From Embleya hyalina (GTDB lineage: Bacteria; Actinomycetota; Actinomycetes; Streptomycetales; Streptomycetaceae), in NCBI RefSeq assembly GCF_003967355.1, contig NZ_BIFH01000016.1, positions 248,001-312,000 of the forward strand: a DNA stretch of 64,000 bases, written 5' to 3'. Positions within the stretch are counted from its first letter, which is position 1, and every line of letters begins with the position of its first letter. Of this stretch, positions 28,433-34,578 are shown piece by piece. The position numbers and the translations under genes are program-made. Below the pieces are notes generated by a model, which was not told the origin of the DNA, searched no databases, and saw nothing but the letters and a program-made list of their open reading frames with translations.

Positions 28433-29020
28433 CTACTTGATGATCGTGGTGAGCGGCAACTTGTCCTCGCGCTCGATGATGCACGCGGCCTGGTGGTTGC
28501 CGTGTCGCCACGACTCCATGTCCAGCGGGTACGTGAACGAGAACGTGATCTTCGGCGACGCGGGCTGCCGGTCGACGATCGGGCCGACGTACTGCTCGCA
28601 CAGATCGCTGACCTTGTCCTCGTAGCCGGGGGTCTCCGGCGTGACCGTGGACGGCAGCTCGAAGGCCCGGCCGACCTGGCCGTTGTGCGACTTGCTGCAC
28701 GGCACGTCGTCGGTCTTGGTGCCGTTCTGGTTGATGCACTGGCCGGTCTTGTACGTGAACGCGTCGATCACGTCGGCCGAGCCGCTCGCGGAGCCGGTCG
28801 GCTTCGGCAGGCCCGTCGCCTTGCCGGTCGGCTTGCCGGTCGGGCTCGTGGTGGCCTTCTCGGTGGCGCTCGCGTTCGTGGACGCGGTCGCGGAGGAGGT
28901 GGGAGCCTTGCTGCTCTTGTCGCTCTTGTCACTGCCGAGACAGCCGGACAGCAGGGCGGTGGCGGCGACGACTCCGGCCACGGCCGGCGCGATCGTGCGC
29001 AGGCGGTGGGTGGTGGGCAT
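28433..29020 (-). CDS. Lipoprotein with septum-formation-like domain
   Basis: 195 residues from the ATG at 29020. A lipobox LLSGC (Cys27) ends the signal peptide. Then comes a Ser/Thr/Lys/Ala linker of about 60 residues (DKSDKSSKAPTSSATAS...), and a small domain with three or more cysteines: FTYKTGQCINQNG, VPCSKSHNGQVGRAFELP, DLCEQYVGP, CIIEREDKLP. The CSxxHxxxV-like pattern and flanking sequence match the actinobacterial Septum_form/DUF4190-associated domain. Function is unknown; it is anchored outside the membrane. Separate from the S26 operon, whose last gene ends 131 bases upstream. Confidence 0.72.
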   Translation of the reverse strand: MPTTHRLRTIAPAVAGVVAATALLSGCLGSDKSDKSSKAPTSSATASTNASATEKATTSPTGKPTGKATGLPKPTGSASGSADVIDAFTYKTGQCINQNGTKTDDVPCSKSHNGQVGRAFELPSTVTPETPGYEDKVSDLCEQYVGPIVDRQPASPKITFSFTYPLDMESWRHGNHQAACIIEREDKLPLTTIIK

Positions 29021-29151: not shown

Positions 29152-29823
29152 TCAGCCGCGGTACGCGTCGAACCAACGAGGTTCGATCCCGCGCCACGCG
29201 CCGTCCACGGTGTGCGATTCCCGCGCGGCCCCATCCTCGTACGCCGGCGCCGTCCACGCCAGACCCTCGCGCGAGGTGCGTGTCGCGCCGGTCGGCGGCA
29301 CGATCCGGCGCACCGCGACGCCGACCACCTGATGGCGGTACACGAATCCGTACGCGCGCGAGTCCCAACTCGACGCGGCGTTGTCGCCCAGCACGACCAG
29401 CGCGCCGTCGGGCACCCGTTCCTCGGCCACGTCGCGCAGCACCGGGAACCGCTCCCGGGGCACCCGATCACCGCCCACCGCCACCGCCCGCTTGATCATC
29501 AACCGACCGGCCGGCCGCGGGGCCCACTCCGGCCGCATCGGCAGCGCGGCCAGCTCCTCCGGCGTCGACTCCCGCAGTTCGGGCGGCAGTCCGGGCAGTG
29601 TCGCCGGGTTGGGCACCAGGACGACCACCACCTGACCGGCCCGGACCCGGGCACCGCGGCGCACCAGGAGCCGATCGCCCGGGGCGAGCGTGGGTTCCAT
29701 GCTGGGCCCCTCGACCGTGGCCACCAGATAGCGCCGCCGCACCCACAGCAGCGCCGCCACGGCCGGCGCCCCGACCGCGGTCGCGGCCACCAGGCCCGTG
29801 CGTCCGTGCACCCGTGCGCTCAC
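29152..29823 (-). CDS. S26 family signal peptidase of the peptide operon
   Basis: 223 residues from the GTG at 29823, overlapping the exporter stop by four bases (GTGA). One N-terminal membrane segment (about residues 11-28) precedes the catalytic region. The Ser/Lys dyad is intact: Ser41 in VEGPSMEPTLAPGD and Lys111 in RLMIKRAVAVGGD. The GDNAASSWDSRAYG box and a C-terminal VGVAVRRIVPP complete the family pattern. General signal peptidases sit in other contexts; this one ends an operon with an ABC exporter and redox proteins, so it likely removes the leader of the 53-residue peptide outside the membrane. Confidence 0.9.
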   Translation of the reverse strand: MSARVHGRTGLVAATAVGAPAVAALLWVRRRYLVATVEGPSMEPTLAPGDRLLVRRGARVRAGQVVVVLVPNPATLPGLPPELRESTPEELAALPMRPEWAPRPAGRLMIKRAVAVGGDRVPRERFPVLRDVAEERVPDGALVVLGDNAASSWDSRAYGFVYRHQVVGVAVRRIVPPTGATRTSREGLAWTAPAYEDGAARESHTVDGAWRGIEPRWFDAYRG

Positions 29824-31640
29824 TTCGCCTCCTGATATCCCGCGGCCTGGAGCCGGAACAGCTTCGCGTAGTACCCCTCGCGGTCGAGCAATTCCTCGTG
29901 CGAGCCCTGTTCGGCGATCCGGCCGGCCGACAGCACCACGATCACGTCGGCGTCGCGCACCGCGCCGAGCCGATGCGAGATGAGCAGACTGGTGCCTCCC
30001 TCGCGGTATTCGCGCATCCGGGTGTGCACCTCGTGCTCGGCCTGCGGATCGAGCCCCGAGCTGGGCTCGTCCAGGATCATCAGCTCGCGCCCGACGCGGA
30101 CGAACGCCCGGGCCAGGGCGAGCCGTTGCCACTGGCCGCCGGAGAGCACCACGCCCGTGTCCGGGTCCGCCTTGTCCGCCTCGCTGAAGAACATCCGGGT
30201 CAGCAGCGTGTCGTAGCCGCGCGGCAGGGCGGCCAACTTCGCGTGGATGCCCGCCCGTTGCGCGGCGGCCTCGATCCGGTCCCGGTCGTCCAGGTGGGTC
30301 GGGTCGCCCAGCGCGATGTTGTCCGCCGCGCTCATGTCGTAGTTCATGTGGTCCTGGAACACCGCGCTGATCCGCTCCCGCAGCGCGGCGGGCGGGATCT
30401 CGCGCAGGTCCACGCCGTCCCAGGTGATCCGCCCCCGGGTCGGGTCGTACATCCGGCACAGCAGCTTGACCAGCGTGCTCTTGCCCGCGCCGTTGAGCCC
30501 GACCAGGGCCACCGCGCGGCCGTGCGGAATGCTCAGGTCGACCCCGCCCAGCACCCAGGGATGCTCGTCGCTGTAGCGGAACCACACGTCGTGGAACTCG
30601 ATGCCCGCCCCGGGCACGGGCACCACCGTCGGGCCGGCGATCGCCGAGACCAGGTCGGGTTCGGCCCGGGACACCGCGACGTAGTGGGTCAGGCCGAGCA
30701 GTTGCCCGTAGGTGGCGGCGATGGAGGCGACCAGGGTGTTCAGCGCGTTCTGGATACCGGTCAGCGCGGCGACGAACATCACCACGTCGCCGACGGTGAG
30801 CCTGCCGTCGTGCGCCGCCGTCACTGCCCACCACAGGCCGCCGCCGGCCACCGCGGCGCCGAGCGCGCCCAGTGCCGCCTGGGTGACGAACTCGCGCAGA
30901 TCCATGCGCCGTTCGGCCTCGTTGGCGCGAAGACGCTCGCCCATCATCCGCGCCCGCAGCACCGGCCCGATCCCGAACAGCCGGATCTCGGTGGCCGCCT
31001 GGACACCCGTGAGCAGCCCGCCGTAGAAGAACTCCCGGCGGTGCACCTGCTCGTTCTCCCACAACATCCCGGCCCGCATGCGGGACAACCGCAGTTCGGC
31101 GATCAGCACCGGCACGCCCGCCACCAACACCAGCGCGGTCATCGTGGGACTGAGGATCAACAGCGAGCCGATGAAGCCGACCAGGGTCAGCGAGCCCTGC
31201 AGGGTGTTGCCCGCGCCGTCGACGAGGCCGCCGACGTTGGTGGTGCTCTGCTTGGCCAGCCGCAGCCGGTCCAGGAACGCCGGGTCCTCGAATCGGCGCA
31301 GCCCCACCTGGCGTTCGGCCGCGCCGAAGAGTCGGTCGGTGGCCAGCACGCCGGTGGCCCGGCCGATCTGGGCGTGCAGGTAGCGGCCGAGCCCGGGCAG
31401 TACGGTCGCGACCAGCCCGATGCCCGCGAGCGCGAGCGCCGGCGCGGTGATCGAACCGTGCGGGTCGGCCAACCGGTCGATCACCGACTTGGTCGACCAC
31501 GCGGTGGCGATCGGCAGACCCGCCGAAGCGATCGTGACCGCCAGCGACCCGACGGCCCGGCCGGGCGCGGCGCGCAGGATCAGCGCCAGCCCCACCCGCG
31601 CGGCGCCGGCCGCCTCGCGGGTGGATATCCGTCCGCTCAC
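29820..31640 (-). CDS. ABC exporter (permease-ATPase fusion) of the peptide operon
   Basis: 606 residues from the GTG at 31640, which overlaps the upstream stop (GTGA). An N-terminal exporter membrane domain with about six segments (residues about 15-310) is followed by one ATPase: Walker A VGLNGAGKSTLVKLL, signature LSGGQWQRLALARAF, Walker B LMILDEPSSGLDP, H-loop LLISHRL. There is no N-terminal C39 peptidase, so cleavage must be done by another enzyme, presumably the S26 protein encoded next. Architecture is the LanT-without-protease type found in RiPP clusters. Substrate inferred to be the Cys-rich peptide. Confidence 0.9.
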   Translation of the reverse strand: MSGRISTREAAGAARVGLALILRAAPGRAVGSLAVTIASAGLPIATAWSTKSVIDRLADPHGSITAPALALAGIGLVATVLPGLGRYLHAQIGRATGVLATDRLFGAAERQVGLRRFEDPAFLDRLRLAKQSTTNVGGLVDGAGNTLQGSLTLVGFIGSLLILSPTMTALVLVAGVPVLIAELRLSRMRAGMLWENEQVHRREFFYGGLLTGVQAATEIRLFGIGPVLRARMMGERLRANEAERRMDLREFVTQAALGALGAAVAGGGLWWAVTAAHDGRLTVGDVVMFVAALTGIQNALNTLVASIAATYGQLLGLTHYVAVSRAEPDLVSAIAGPTVVPVPGAGIEFHDVWFRYSDEHPWVLGGVDLSIPHGRAVALVGLNGAGKSTLVKLLCRMYDPTRGRITWDGVDLREIPPAALRERISAVFQDHMNYDMSAADNIALGDPTHLDDRDRIEAAAQRAGIHAKLAALPRGYDTLLTRMFFSEADKADPDTGVVLSGGQWQRLALARAFVRVGRELMILDEPSSGLDPQAEHEVHTRMREYREGGTSLLISHRLGAVRDADVIVVLSAGRIAEQGSHEELLDREGYYAKLFRLQAAGYQEAK

Positions 31641-32161
31641 GCGGGGGCTTCGCTGAACAGGTCCGTCATCCGGCCGCCGGAGGCCACCACGCGCCGATCC
31701 CGCCCGAGCAGGTACACCCACGGCGTCCAACTGTTGTGGAAGGCCGCCTGGACCGCGCCGTCGTAGTCCTCCACGATCACCCGGGCCACCGGGGCGAGGA
31801 CGGCCGACAACTCGGGGTCGGTGCCCGCGATCACCGCGATCACCCGGTCCCGGCCCATGACCTCGGCCTGCTCGGCGAACCGCGGCGCGAGGGTGTGGCA
31901 GGGCGTGCAGTGCGCGGAGAAGAACCCGACCATGCCGTGGACGTCGGAGTCGGAGATCCGTTCGCCGTCGGTGGTGGTCGCGGTGAACGACTCGGGACGC
32001 ACGCCGGGTCGCAGCCCGTGCGCGGGTGGGTCCGAGGCCGCGTGGCCGCCGTGTGGCGGACTCGATTGTTCCCGCAGGCGACGGATGACGCCCAGGGTGA
32101 GCAGCAGATTGACCGCGGTGATCAGGGCCAGCAGCACCACGGCGGCGACCAGGTAGGGCAT
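31637..32161 (-). CDS. TlpA-like membrane-anchored thiol-disulfide protein
   Basis: 174 residues. Residues 1-26 are one membrane segment (YLVAAVVLLALITAVNLLLTLGV), then a linker and a thioredoxin-fold domain outside the membrane. The redox pair is Cys85-Thr-Pro-Cys88 in FFSAHCTPCHTLAPRF; the cis-Pro region is NSWTPWVYLL. ATGA overlap with the MauE-like gene and GTGA overlap with the exporter show tight coupling. MauE plus TlpA/MauD pairs shuttle thiol electrons across the membrane. Here the likely job is to form or reshuffle disulfides in the six-cysteine peptide. Confidence 0.88.
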   Translation of the reverse strand: MPYLVAAVVLLALITAVNLLLTLGVIRRLREQSSPPHGGHAASDPPAHGLRPGVRPESFTATTTDGERISDSDVHGMVGFFSAHCTPCHTLAPRFAEQAEVMGRDRVIAVIAGTDPELSAVLAPVARVIVEDYDGAVQAAFHNSWTPWVYLLGRDRRVVASGGRMTDLFSEAPA

Positions 32162-32968: not shown

Positions 32969-33000
32969 GCTGCGGGCGGGGGTCGGGGCCCGCCCGCAGC
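32969..33000 (-). terminator. Hairpin directly after the Cys-rich peptide gene
   Basis: Twelve-base perfect stem: GCTGCGGGCGGG at 32969-32980 pairs with CCCGCCCGCAGC at 32989-33000, loop of eight bases. It begins 19 bases after the peptide stop codon. In peptide biosynthetic operons such a partial terminator gives much peptide transcript and less of the processing genes. Confidence 0.8.
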
Positions 33001-33018: not shown

Positions 33019-33180
33019 TCAACAGCCCTTGGCGATCAGGACGGTGCTGCAGCCCTCATCCTTGCAACACTGCCGCAGGTAGTAGTAACCGTTCTGGCAG
33101 TAGTAGTAGTTCGAGCAGCCGGCTTCGGCGGTGACCTTTTGGGCCACGCGGTCGAGCAGGCGGTCGGCGAGACGCATCAT
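33019..33180 (-). CDS. Six-cysteine, tyrosine-rich precursor peptide (novel RiPP-like)
   Basis: 53 residues, ATG at 33180 with GAGGAG six bases before it. Residues 1-20 are an amphipathic, positively charged leader without Cys (RLADRLLDRVAQKV then TAEA). Residues 21-53 form a core with cysteines at 22, 28, 38, 39, 44 and 53 and six tyrosines in two triplets (CSNYYYCQNGYYYL), ending in KGC. Codon choice is normal and the C-terminal residue is Cys. It directly precedes the MauE-TlpA-exporter-S26 operon on the same strand. A secreted disulfide-rich peptide with leader removal near AEA/G is inferred. I recognise no known family. Confidence 0.85.
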   Translation of the reverse strand: MMRLADRLLDRVAQKVTAEAGCSNYYYCQNGYYYLRQCCKDEGCSTVLIAKGC

Positions 33181-33227
33181 GACGTCTCCTCTCCCGGCCG
33201 GGTAGGGCCGTTCGGATTGGTGATCGG

Positions 33228-33372: not shown

Positions 33373-34104
33373 TTACGGGACGAGGTGGGCAAAGACGACG
33401 ACATTGCCGGAGTAGTGATTCTTCTTGCTGTACGCACCACCGCAGGTGATCAGCCGCAATTCCGGCCGGGCCGCGTCGCCGAACACCCGCGCGGTGGGGA
33501 ACGTGTCCTTGGCGAACGCCTCGACCCCGTCCACCTCGAACGCCGCGACGCTGCCGTCCTCACGATCGATCTCGATCCGGGACCCGCGCGGGAGCGCGCC
33601 GAGCGGATAGAAGACCGCCGGGCCGGCGGCGGTGTCCACGTGGCCGGCGATCGACGCGGTGCCCTTCTGCCCGGGGGTGACGCCGCCCTGGTACCAGCCG
33701 GCCAGGTTGCGCTCGGCCTGCGCGGGCACGTCGATGCCGCCGTCCTTGTCCAGACCGACCCGGGCCAGCGGCGCCGAGATGTCCAGTGTCGGGATCCGGA
33801 TCCGGGTCGGGAACGACGCGCGCATCGGCGTCGCCTCCGGCGCGGGCGCGGGCGCCTCGGCGGCGCCCGCCGGCCCCGCGGTCGCGCCCACCGGCCCCGG
33901 CCCCGGATCCGCCCGGGGGATCGGCACGGCCGCGGCGGCGGGCGGGCGCGGCGGCGGTCGGTCGGCGTCGAACCCGGCGTACAACAGACCGGTGCCGCAG
34001 ATCGCCAGCGCGCCGGTGGCCGCCGCCCAGACCAGGCGGCGGCCACTGCGTCGGTGCTGCCGATCCGCGGCGCCCTCGGGTGCCTCGGGTACGGAACGGG
34101 TCAT
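33373..34104 (-). CDS. Class F sortase
   Basis: 243 residues. An N-terminal membrane segment (residues about 25-45) is followed by a Pro/Ala-rich linker and the sortase barrel. Motifs: PTRIRIPTLDISAPLARVGL, the catalytic His in SIAGHVDTAAGPAVFYPLG, and the Cys in LRLITCGGAY. The C-terminal strand NHYSGNVVVFAHL has no clear catalytic Arg at the usual site. Class F sortases are typical of actinomycetes and attach surface proteins at low abundance. It follows the small secreted protein gene by three bases and probably acts with it. Confidence 0.88.
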   Translation of the reverse strand: MTRSVPEAPEGAADRQHRRSGRRLVWAAATGALAICGTGLLYAGFDADRPPPRPPAAAAVPIPRADPGPGPVGATAGPAGAAEAPAPAPEATPMRASFPTRIRIPTLDISAPLARVGLDKDGGIDVPAQAERNLAGWYQGGVTPGQKGTASIAGHVDTAAGPAVFYPLGALPRGSRIEIDREDGSVAAFEVDGVEAFAKDTFPTARVFGDAARPELRLITCGGAYSKKNHYSGNVVVFAHLVP

Positions 34105-34107
34105 CGG

Positions 34108-34578
34108 TCAGGCGGGGTTCGCGGTCCGACGGCGCAGCGCGACGAAGCCGGTGCCGGCCGCGCCCGCGAGCACCAGACCACCCACCGCGAGCAGCGCCGG
34201 GTCCGCTCCCTGGGTGCCGCCGAAGCCGGCCGTGGACGGCGCGGTCGGCGCGGCGCCCATCACGTGCAGGCTGCCGATCAGCTCCTGACCCTCACCGCAG
34301 ACGACCTTGACCTCGTAGTCGCCGGTGGCCACGTCCTTGATGGTCGCCTGACCCTTGACCTCGTCGCCGGAACGGGTGAGGGTGACCGAGGACGTGAACG
34401 CCTCCGAGGTCGCGGTCGCGGTGTTCGCGGTGCAGTGCTTGTCGTCCGACAACAACACGGTGTCGCCGGGGCGACCGGAATCGGCCTGCATCGGCGTGGC
34501 GGCGAACGCCGCGCCTGCGGAACCGCATACGGTGAGACCGACGATCGTGCCGACGACGGCGAGACGGGCACAGCGCAT
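34108..34578 (-). CDS. Small secreted membrane-anchored protein, sortase partner
   Basis: 156 residues from the ATG at 34578. A signal peptide (LAVVGTIVGLTVCGSAGAAFA, cut near residue 27) precedes a beta-rich domain of about 85 residues with two Cys (DKHCTANTATATSEAF; VKVVCGEGQELIG), then a linker, a C-terminal membrane segment (LLAVGGLVLAGAAGTGFVAL) and RRRTANPA. This is the layout of a sorted protein, but no LPxTG is present; the pre-membrane segment reads STAGFGGTQGADP. The sortase gene follows after three bases, suggesting it is the partner or substrate. Confidence 0.72.
   Translation of the reverse strand: MRCARLAVVGTIVGLTVCGSAGAAFAATPMQADSGRPGDTVLLSDDKHCTANTATATSEAFTSSVTLTRSGDEVKGQATIKDVATGDYEVKVVCGEGQELIGSLHVMGAAPTAPSTAGFGGTQGADPALLAVGGLVLAGAAGTGFVALRRRTANPA

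What the first reader, a model, noticed from the sequence alone, without database searches (positions are those of the whole stretch)
33019..33180. Missed small gene with two Tyr triplets and a terminal cysteine
The frame is below the size that gene callers usually accept. Its GAGGAG site, ATG, low GC promoter and balanced codons argue for a real gene. The CSNYYYCQNGYYYL pattern and the Cys-Cys pair at 38-39 suggest a compact knotted fold; Cys53 is the very last residue, so a disulfide could clamp the C-terminus. Tyrosines could also be cross-linking or metal-related.
Basis: partly seen in the sequence, partly recalled or inferred. Interest (0 to 1): 0.75.

Follow-up and report, generated by a model that had tools for sequence, protein, structure and literature searches.

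The report
Hypervariable disulfide-rich peptide export cassette
The tiny gene is real: it encodes one member of a large, scarcely described actinomycete family of small cysteine-rich secreted peptides, each made beside its own oxidation, export and cutting machinery, much as venom peptides share a fixed leader and a fast-changing business end.

Summary
The 53-codon gene is real. It lies on the MINUS strand (33180→33019) of an Embleya genome. Its precursor has a ~20-residue leader without a Sec signal, ending in an AxA site, and a 6-Cys core. Behind it lie translationally coupled genes for MauE, a MauD/TlpA-like thioredoxin, an MsbA-like ABC exporter and an S26 signal peptidase. I recovered 110 precursor genes (89 by an ABC-seeded scan, 21 more elsewhere) in Embleya, Streptomyces, Streptosporangiales, Amycolatopsis and Micromonosporaceae. 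Leaders are conserved; cores diverge sharply. The core Cys count is even in 110/110 (4, 6, 8 or 10). All 22 loci found from the precursor carry all four partner genes. All six Cys are conserved in the close subfamily; the two Tyr triplets are not. AlphaFold2 gives a helical leader and a three-stranded β-sheet core (pLDDT 94), with no significant PDB match. Best reading: precursor of an exported, disulfide-stapled mini-protein, oxidised by MauE/MauD, exported by the ABC protein and cut by S26, probably an antagonistic peptide (function inferred). decRiPPter (2020) flagged MauE/MauD RiPP candidates in Streptomyces; no description of this leader/S26 family was found. Charge patterns place the redox cysteines on the cytoplasmic face (inference).

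The parts
33019..33180 (-). Precursor peptide gene, 53 aa, 6 Cys, including stop codon
   Evidence: homologues in all 4 searched genomes of the genus and 110 precursors in all
33121..33180 (-). Leader, residues 1-20, amphipathic helix ending in A-E-A (predicted signal peptidase site TAEA|GC); no hydrophobic signal core
   Evidence: [AV]xA immediately before the core in 88 of 89 precursors; helix 3-20 in the AF2 model
33022..33120 (-). Core (mature) peptide, residues 21-53, Cys at 22, 28, 38, 39, 44, 53
   Evidence: Cys invariant in the close subfamily; three strands, mean pLDDT 94
33186..33191 (-). Shine-Dalgarno site GAGGAG
   Evidence: sequence; the same GAGAGGAGA context precedes homologues in L015, L018, L022, L019, L024
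33228..33257 (-). Sigma-70-like promoter candidate TTGCCA-18-AATAAT
   Evidence: 1 found, 0.2 expected
32969..33000 (-). 12-bp perfect GC-rich hairpin 18 nt after the peptide stop; probable attenuator favouring precursor over enzymes
   Evidence: z -3.1; hairpins with changed but still paired stems at the same place in L018, L017, L105, L007
32161..32688 (-). MauE membrane protein with invariant C-x-C-F-G motif
   Evidence: PF07291, 93 bits against a cut-off of 27; CxC invariant in 67/67
31637..32161 (-). MauD/TlpA-like membrane-anchored thioredoxin with CTPC; TGATG overlap with mauE
   Evidence: CxxC invariant in 82/82
29820..31640 (-). MsbA-like ABC exporter (membrane + ATPase), no C39 peptidase domain; GTGA overlap with the thioredoxin gene
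29152..29823 (-). S26 signal peptidase I-like protease with Ser-Met and Lys-Arg catalytic motifs; GTGA overlap with the ABC gene
   Evidence: TIGR02227 69 bits against a cut-off of 47; PF10502 70 bits; both motifs invariant in 86/86

Best explanation
The gene encodes the precursor of a secreted, disulfide-stapled mini-protein. The ribosome makes leader + core. The amphipathic leader (...DRLLDRVAQKVTAEA), which is not a Sec signal, is the recognition tag for a dedicated cassette. MauE (a membrane thiol oxidase of DoxX/MauE type) and the MauD-like thioredoxin form the pairwise disulfides. The MsbA-like ABC protein exports the peptide. The dedicated S26 signal peptidase cuts after AxA outside, releasing a ~33-residue three-stranded beta-sheet peptide. 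A hairpin after the precursor gene probably limits read-through, so that precursor exceeds enzymes. Shown here: gene reality, operon structure, catalytic motifs, bidirectional co-occurrence, even Cys counts, leader conservation against core divergence. Inferred: oxidation, export and cleavage steps and their order. Inferred more weakly: the biological role, most likely an antagonistic (antimicrobial or anti-eukaryotic) peptide, about 0.5 on its own.
For: Family of 89 precursors in ABC-seeded loci and 21 more elsewhere. Reciprocal test: all 22 precursor-seeded loci, 16 of them new, carry MauE, thioredoxin, ABC and S26; in the ABC-seeded loci with precursors the thioredoxin was missed in one and S26 in none. 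Even core Cys count in 110/110, in 43/43 after 50% redundancy reduction of the 89, against 64% even among unrelated ORFs with 4-10 Cys. [AV]xA before the core in 88/89. Leaders 42% identical on average, cores 22%, cores without Cys 19%; against E. scabrispora pN is 0.13 in the leader and 0.37 in the core. Redox and protease motifs invariant. Operon overlaps TGATG, GTGA, GTGA. Core pLDDT 94. Three full cassettes plus one decayed copy in this genome. Up to seven precursor genes in one locus (L047). AfsR/SARP-type regulator at 44 of 84 loci.
Against: No wet-lab data. MauE was not detected in 17 ABC-seeded precursor loci. No immunity gene recurs, which weakens the bacteriocin reading (ORFs under 90 aa were checked only roughly). 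By the positive-inside rule the MauE CxC and the MauD thioredoxin domain face the cytoplasm, unexpected if oxidation happens after export.
Confidence: 0.8

Rival explanations
1. Same maturation, but the peptide is an extracellular signal or developmental factor rather than a toxin.
For: Regulators near many loci; no conserved immunity gene found.
Against: Hypervariable cores and several different cores within one locus (L047, L010) fit toxins or antigens better than a signal with one receptor; no receptor gene recurs.
Confidence: 0.22
2. The core is a carbohydrate- or chitin-binding module (CBM_14-like), used for adhesion or against fungi.
For: 5 of 68 members match PF01607 weakly, best E 5e-4; aromatic residues beside Cys; beta-sheet core.
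Against: Most members do not match, the window member scores 18.6 against a cut-off of 22.1 bits, and Foldseek gave no significant CBM_14 structure.
Confidence: 0.12
3. The Cys bind metal (zinc, copper), making a metallopeptide.
For: Cys-rich, CC pairs.
Against: Dedicated thiol-redox genes, even counts of 4, 6, 8 and 10 rather than a fixed ligand set, no zinc-ribbon match above cut-off.
Confidence: 0.06
4. The peptide is the small subunit of an amine-dehydrogenase-like enzyme (MauA-like), with MauE/MauD in their textbook role.
For: MauE and MauD-like genes.
Against: No MauA (PF02975) match in the genome (whose control was silent too), no large subunit in the operon, hypervariable core without conserved Trp or Tyr.
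Confidence: 0.02
5. Spurious ORF or chance.
For: Short frame.
Against: 110 homologues, synonymous Cys-codon changes, conserved cassette.
Confidence: 0.005

Closest known systems
decRiPPter MauE/MauD candidate RiPP families of Streptomyces (PMC7794033)
   Same: MauE, in one family also MauD, beside a Cys-rich candidate precursor, in clusters filtered for transporter, peptidase and regulator; role in precursor modification proposed.
   Different: Reported precursors have at least 8 Cys and no described leader motif, S26 site or wider family; the window member has 6 Cys. Sequence overlap could not be checked (table not held), but some of the Streptomyces members found here may be the same families.
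MauE/MauD of methylamine dehydrogenase maturation
   Same: Same membrane redox protein families serving a small disulfide-rich secreted polypeptide.
   Different: No dehydrogenase genes; the substrate is a hypervariable peptide with its own exporter and protease.
Actifensins and bacterial defensins (PMC6989792, PMC11561630)
   Same: Actinobacterial leader peptides with three-disulfide mature peptides, ABC genes, several degenerate copies.
   Different: Cys motif C-X5-12-C-X3-C-X9-10-C-X4-5-C-X-C and helix + two strands; here C-X5-C-X9-CC-X4-C-X8-C and three strands; the actifensin locus described has a subtilisin-like protease and no MauE, S26 or thioredoxin.
TMcin (PMC13252029); sublancin-type peptides with their own thiol oxidoreductase (own knowledge)
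   Same: Leader removal, dedicated thioredoxin-fold oxidant, ABC exporter.
   Different: TMcin has one disulfide, a transmembrane helix and an S2P protease; here an even set of 4-10 Cys and an S26 protease.
Nickel superoxide dismutase maturation protease (TIGR02754)
   Same: S26-type protease dedicated to one small precursor; weak match 48 bits against a cut-off of 63.
   Different: Substrate and operon unrelated.

Membership tests
RiPP/bacteriocin-like exported peptides (broad sense) | Short precursor with conserved leader and variable core beside modification, export and protease genes | tested here: met
RiPP/bacteriocin-like exported peptides (broad sense) | Mature product shown to be modified and active | not testable with these tools
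   needs mass spectrometry and bioassay
decRiPPter MauE/MauD candidate families | MauE (and MauD) beside the precursor | tested here: met
decRiPPter MauE/MauD candidate families | Precursor with at least 8 Cys | tested here: not met
   6 Cys in the window; 8-10 in some relatives
decRiPPter MauE/MauD candidate families | Sequence homology to their precursors | not testable with these tools
   their S2 table is not held
MauE family (PF07291), for the partner gene | Score over gathering cut-off, C-x-C-F-G motif | tested here: met
   93 vs 27 bits; CxC in 67/67
Signal peptidase I (S26), for the partner gene | Ser-Lys dyad in SM and KR motifs, score over cut-off | tested here: met
   69.4 vs 47 bits; invariant in 86/86
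CS-alpha-beta (cis) defensins / actifensins | Motif C-X5-12-C-X3-C-X9-10-C-X4-5-C-X-C | tested here: not met
   Cys at 22, 28, 38, 39, 44, 53: no C-X3-C, no C-X-C
CBM_14 / peritrophin-A | Pfam gathering score | tested here: not met
   18.6 vs 22.1 bits for the window member
Known solved folds in general | Significant structural match of the core | tested here: inconclusive
   best Foldseek E 1.3, best VIA Z 3.7
Double-glycine/C39 leader peptides | GG site and C39 domain in the exporter | tested here: not met
   AxA site instead; no C39 in the Pfam scan of the ABC protein

The most novel reading that the evidence does not exclude
A venom-like system in actinomycetes: a fixed leader with freely diversifying disulfide cores, oxidised on the CYTOPLASMIC face by a MauE/MauD relay before ABC export as already folded mini-proteins, with S26 replacing the usual C39 protease.
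Probability: 0.3. Interest if true: 0.8.

Novelty: new variant of a known kind. Interest (0 to 1): 0.66.

Why it matters
It defines, by leader and cassette, a broad family of small disulfide-rich secreted peptides in actinomycetes that matched no Pfam, NCBIfam or PHROGs model above cut-off. Each locus supplies the redox, export and protease genes needed to make its peptide, so the cores could be produced and tested as antimicrobials or scaffolds. It also gives MauE/MauD, poorly understood since methylamine dehydrogenase, a tractable second role, and raises a testable question: can a bacterium make disulfides on the cytoplasmic side before export?

Tried and rejected
Tyr cross-linking: Tyr triplets not conserved. 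Chitin binding by CBM_14: sub-threshold in 5 of 68 members only. Fold relatives: Foldseek and VIA with the whole precursor and the core alone gave nothing significant; weak rows include sea-anemone toxin Ms13-1 (Z 3.0, rmsd 1.9, 31 aligned) and laterosporulin3 (Z 2.4, rmsd 2.2, 31 aligned), tied with unrelated chains. PDB sequence search: only chance leader-helix matches. PHROGs: nothing. Rfam: nothing. MauA search: silent control, so uninformative. The class F sortase and sorting-signal protein upstream are shared within Embleya only and are left out of the system. The fourth MauE of the genome (L104) has no such cassette. A weak hit in G257 (L011) had a stop inside and no cassette and was dropped.

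Full report
What is there. The frame at 33019-33180 is on the minus strand: 53 codons from ATG 33180, GAGGAG 5 nt upstream, G+C by codon position 0.55/0.43/0.87, one promoter-like site at 33257-33228. The genome is 12.05 Mb.

Operon. Downstream on the same strand lie MauE (32688-32161), a thioredoxin-fold protein with CTPC (32161-31637), an MsbA-like ABC exporter (31640-29820) and an S26 signal peptidase (29823-29152). The last three start codons overlap the preceding stops (TGATG, GTGA, GTGA), which implies translational coupling. After the peptide stop comes a perfect 12-bp hairpin (z -3.1). Hairpins with different but complementary stems occupy the same place in L018, L017, L105 and L007: probably an attenuator giving more precursor than enzyme.

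Homologues. All four searched genomes of the genus have the peptide. A scan of 84,980 species genomes with the ABC protein gave 80 loci; an iterated profile found precursors in most of them, 89 distinct genes in all. Genera include Embleya, Streptomyces, Actinomadura, Actinoallomurus, Nonomuraea, Microbispora, Sphaerisporangium, Nocardiopsis, Amycolatopsis, Labedaea, Micromonospora, Dactylosporangium and Catenulispora. A profile search over 394 genomes of the class hit 26; over 296 of the phylum it hit 2, so the family is patchy. Loci found from the precursor alone (22, of which 16 not seen before) all carried MauE, thioredoxin, ABC and S26. This removes the bias of the ABC-seeded scan. This genome has three full cassettes and one decayed copy that keeps its peptide frame.

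Anatomy of the family. Leader: x-x-L-x-D-R-L-L-x-x-L-V-P-K-x-x-A-x-A, with D6, R7, R11 and A20 invariant in the 27-member close set. It has no hydrophobic segment, yet ends in the AxA signature of signal peptidase I in 88 of 89 (81 strictly AxA). Core: 4, 6, 8 or 10 Cys, even in 89/89 and in 21/21 further precursors. Unrelated ORFs with 4-10 Cys in the same loci are even in 64% (474 vs 269). After reduction to 50% identity it is 43 of 43. In the close subfamily C22, C28, C38, C39, C44 and C53 are invariant. Leaders average 42% pairwise identity, cores 22%. Against the in-genome paralogue beside the decayed cassette the core has pN 0.53 and the leader 0.09. Loci may hold several precursors: seven in L047, three in L010. 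An AfsR/SARP-type regulator (BTAD, NB-ARC, TPR) accompanies 44 of 84 loci. The catalytic residues of the partners are invariant: S26 Ser/Lys motifs 86/86, thioredoxin CxxC 82/82, MauE CxC 67/67.

Structure. AlphaFold2 with 27 homologues gives helix 3-20 and strands 22-29, 32-39, 43-51 (mean pLDDT 76). The core alone with 23 homologues gives mean pLDDT 94 and the same strands. Foldseek and VIA-align found no significant PDB match for either. Disulfide pairing was not computed.

Mechanism. The parts indicate a peptide that is oxidised, exported and trimmed. That S26 cuts at AxA follows from established signal peptidase I specificity (own knowledge) and total co-occurrence, but was not shown. That MauE/MauD form disulfides follows from their known families and from the even Cys counts. 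One surprise: in 67 MauE homologues the loop with CxC and loop 1 carry about 4.8 and 5.5 Lys+Arg, the opposite loops about 0.2 each; the thioredoxin anchor has no charge before and about 3 Arg/Lys after the membrane segment. By the positive-inside rule both redox sites face the cytoplasm, so oxidation may precede export. This is inference only; the rule can fail.

Known or new. decRiPPter (PMC7794033) listed three Streptomyces candidate RiPP families with MauE, one also with MauD, precursors with at least 8 Cys, function unknown. Nine searches of 5.39 million open papers found no description of this leader, the S26 link or the wider family. Subscription papers were not covered. Pfam and NCBIfam have no model for it. 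Actifensin-type defensins differ in Cys motif. I therefore call it a new variant of a known kind: an exported disulfide-rich RiPP-like peptide system.

Uncertainty. Biological role is inferred. Hypervariable cores, tandem copies and SARP regulators favour an antagonistic peptide; lack of a recurrent immunity gene leaves a non-bacterial target or a signal open.

Noticed in passing
window 33373-34104 and 34108-34575 (minus): Class F sortase (NF033748, 204 bits) directly upstream, next to a secreted protein with a weak C-terminal sorting-signal match; conserved in other Embleya, not in other genera with the cassette.
   Followed up: partly
L007 9610-10856: Decayed duplicate of the cassette in the same genome: peptide frame intact, only fragments of S26, ABC, thioredoxin and sortase remain.
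   Followed up: partly
L015 8047-8077, L018 4893-4924, L105 6435-6467, L106 6420-6452: A second strong hairpin just upstream of mauE in several Embleya loci; possible RNA control element.
   Followed up: no
window 28433-29020 (minus): Lipoprotein with Septum_form domain (PF13845) downstream of the S26 gene, conserved in Embleya only.
   Followed up: no
MauE and MauD homologues in L008-L097: Charge pattern predicts the redox cysteines on the cytoplasmic side, against the usual periplasmic picture of MauD.
   Followed up: partly
L047 3188-9071: Rhizohabitans locus with seven different precursor genes around one cassette.
   Followed up: partly
L105 (NZ_CP108785.1) and L106 (NZ_CP108777.1): In two other Embleya strains the complete cassette lies on linear replicons of 5.7 and 3.1 Mb labelled plasmids.
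   Followed up: no
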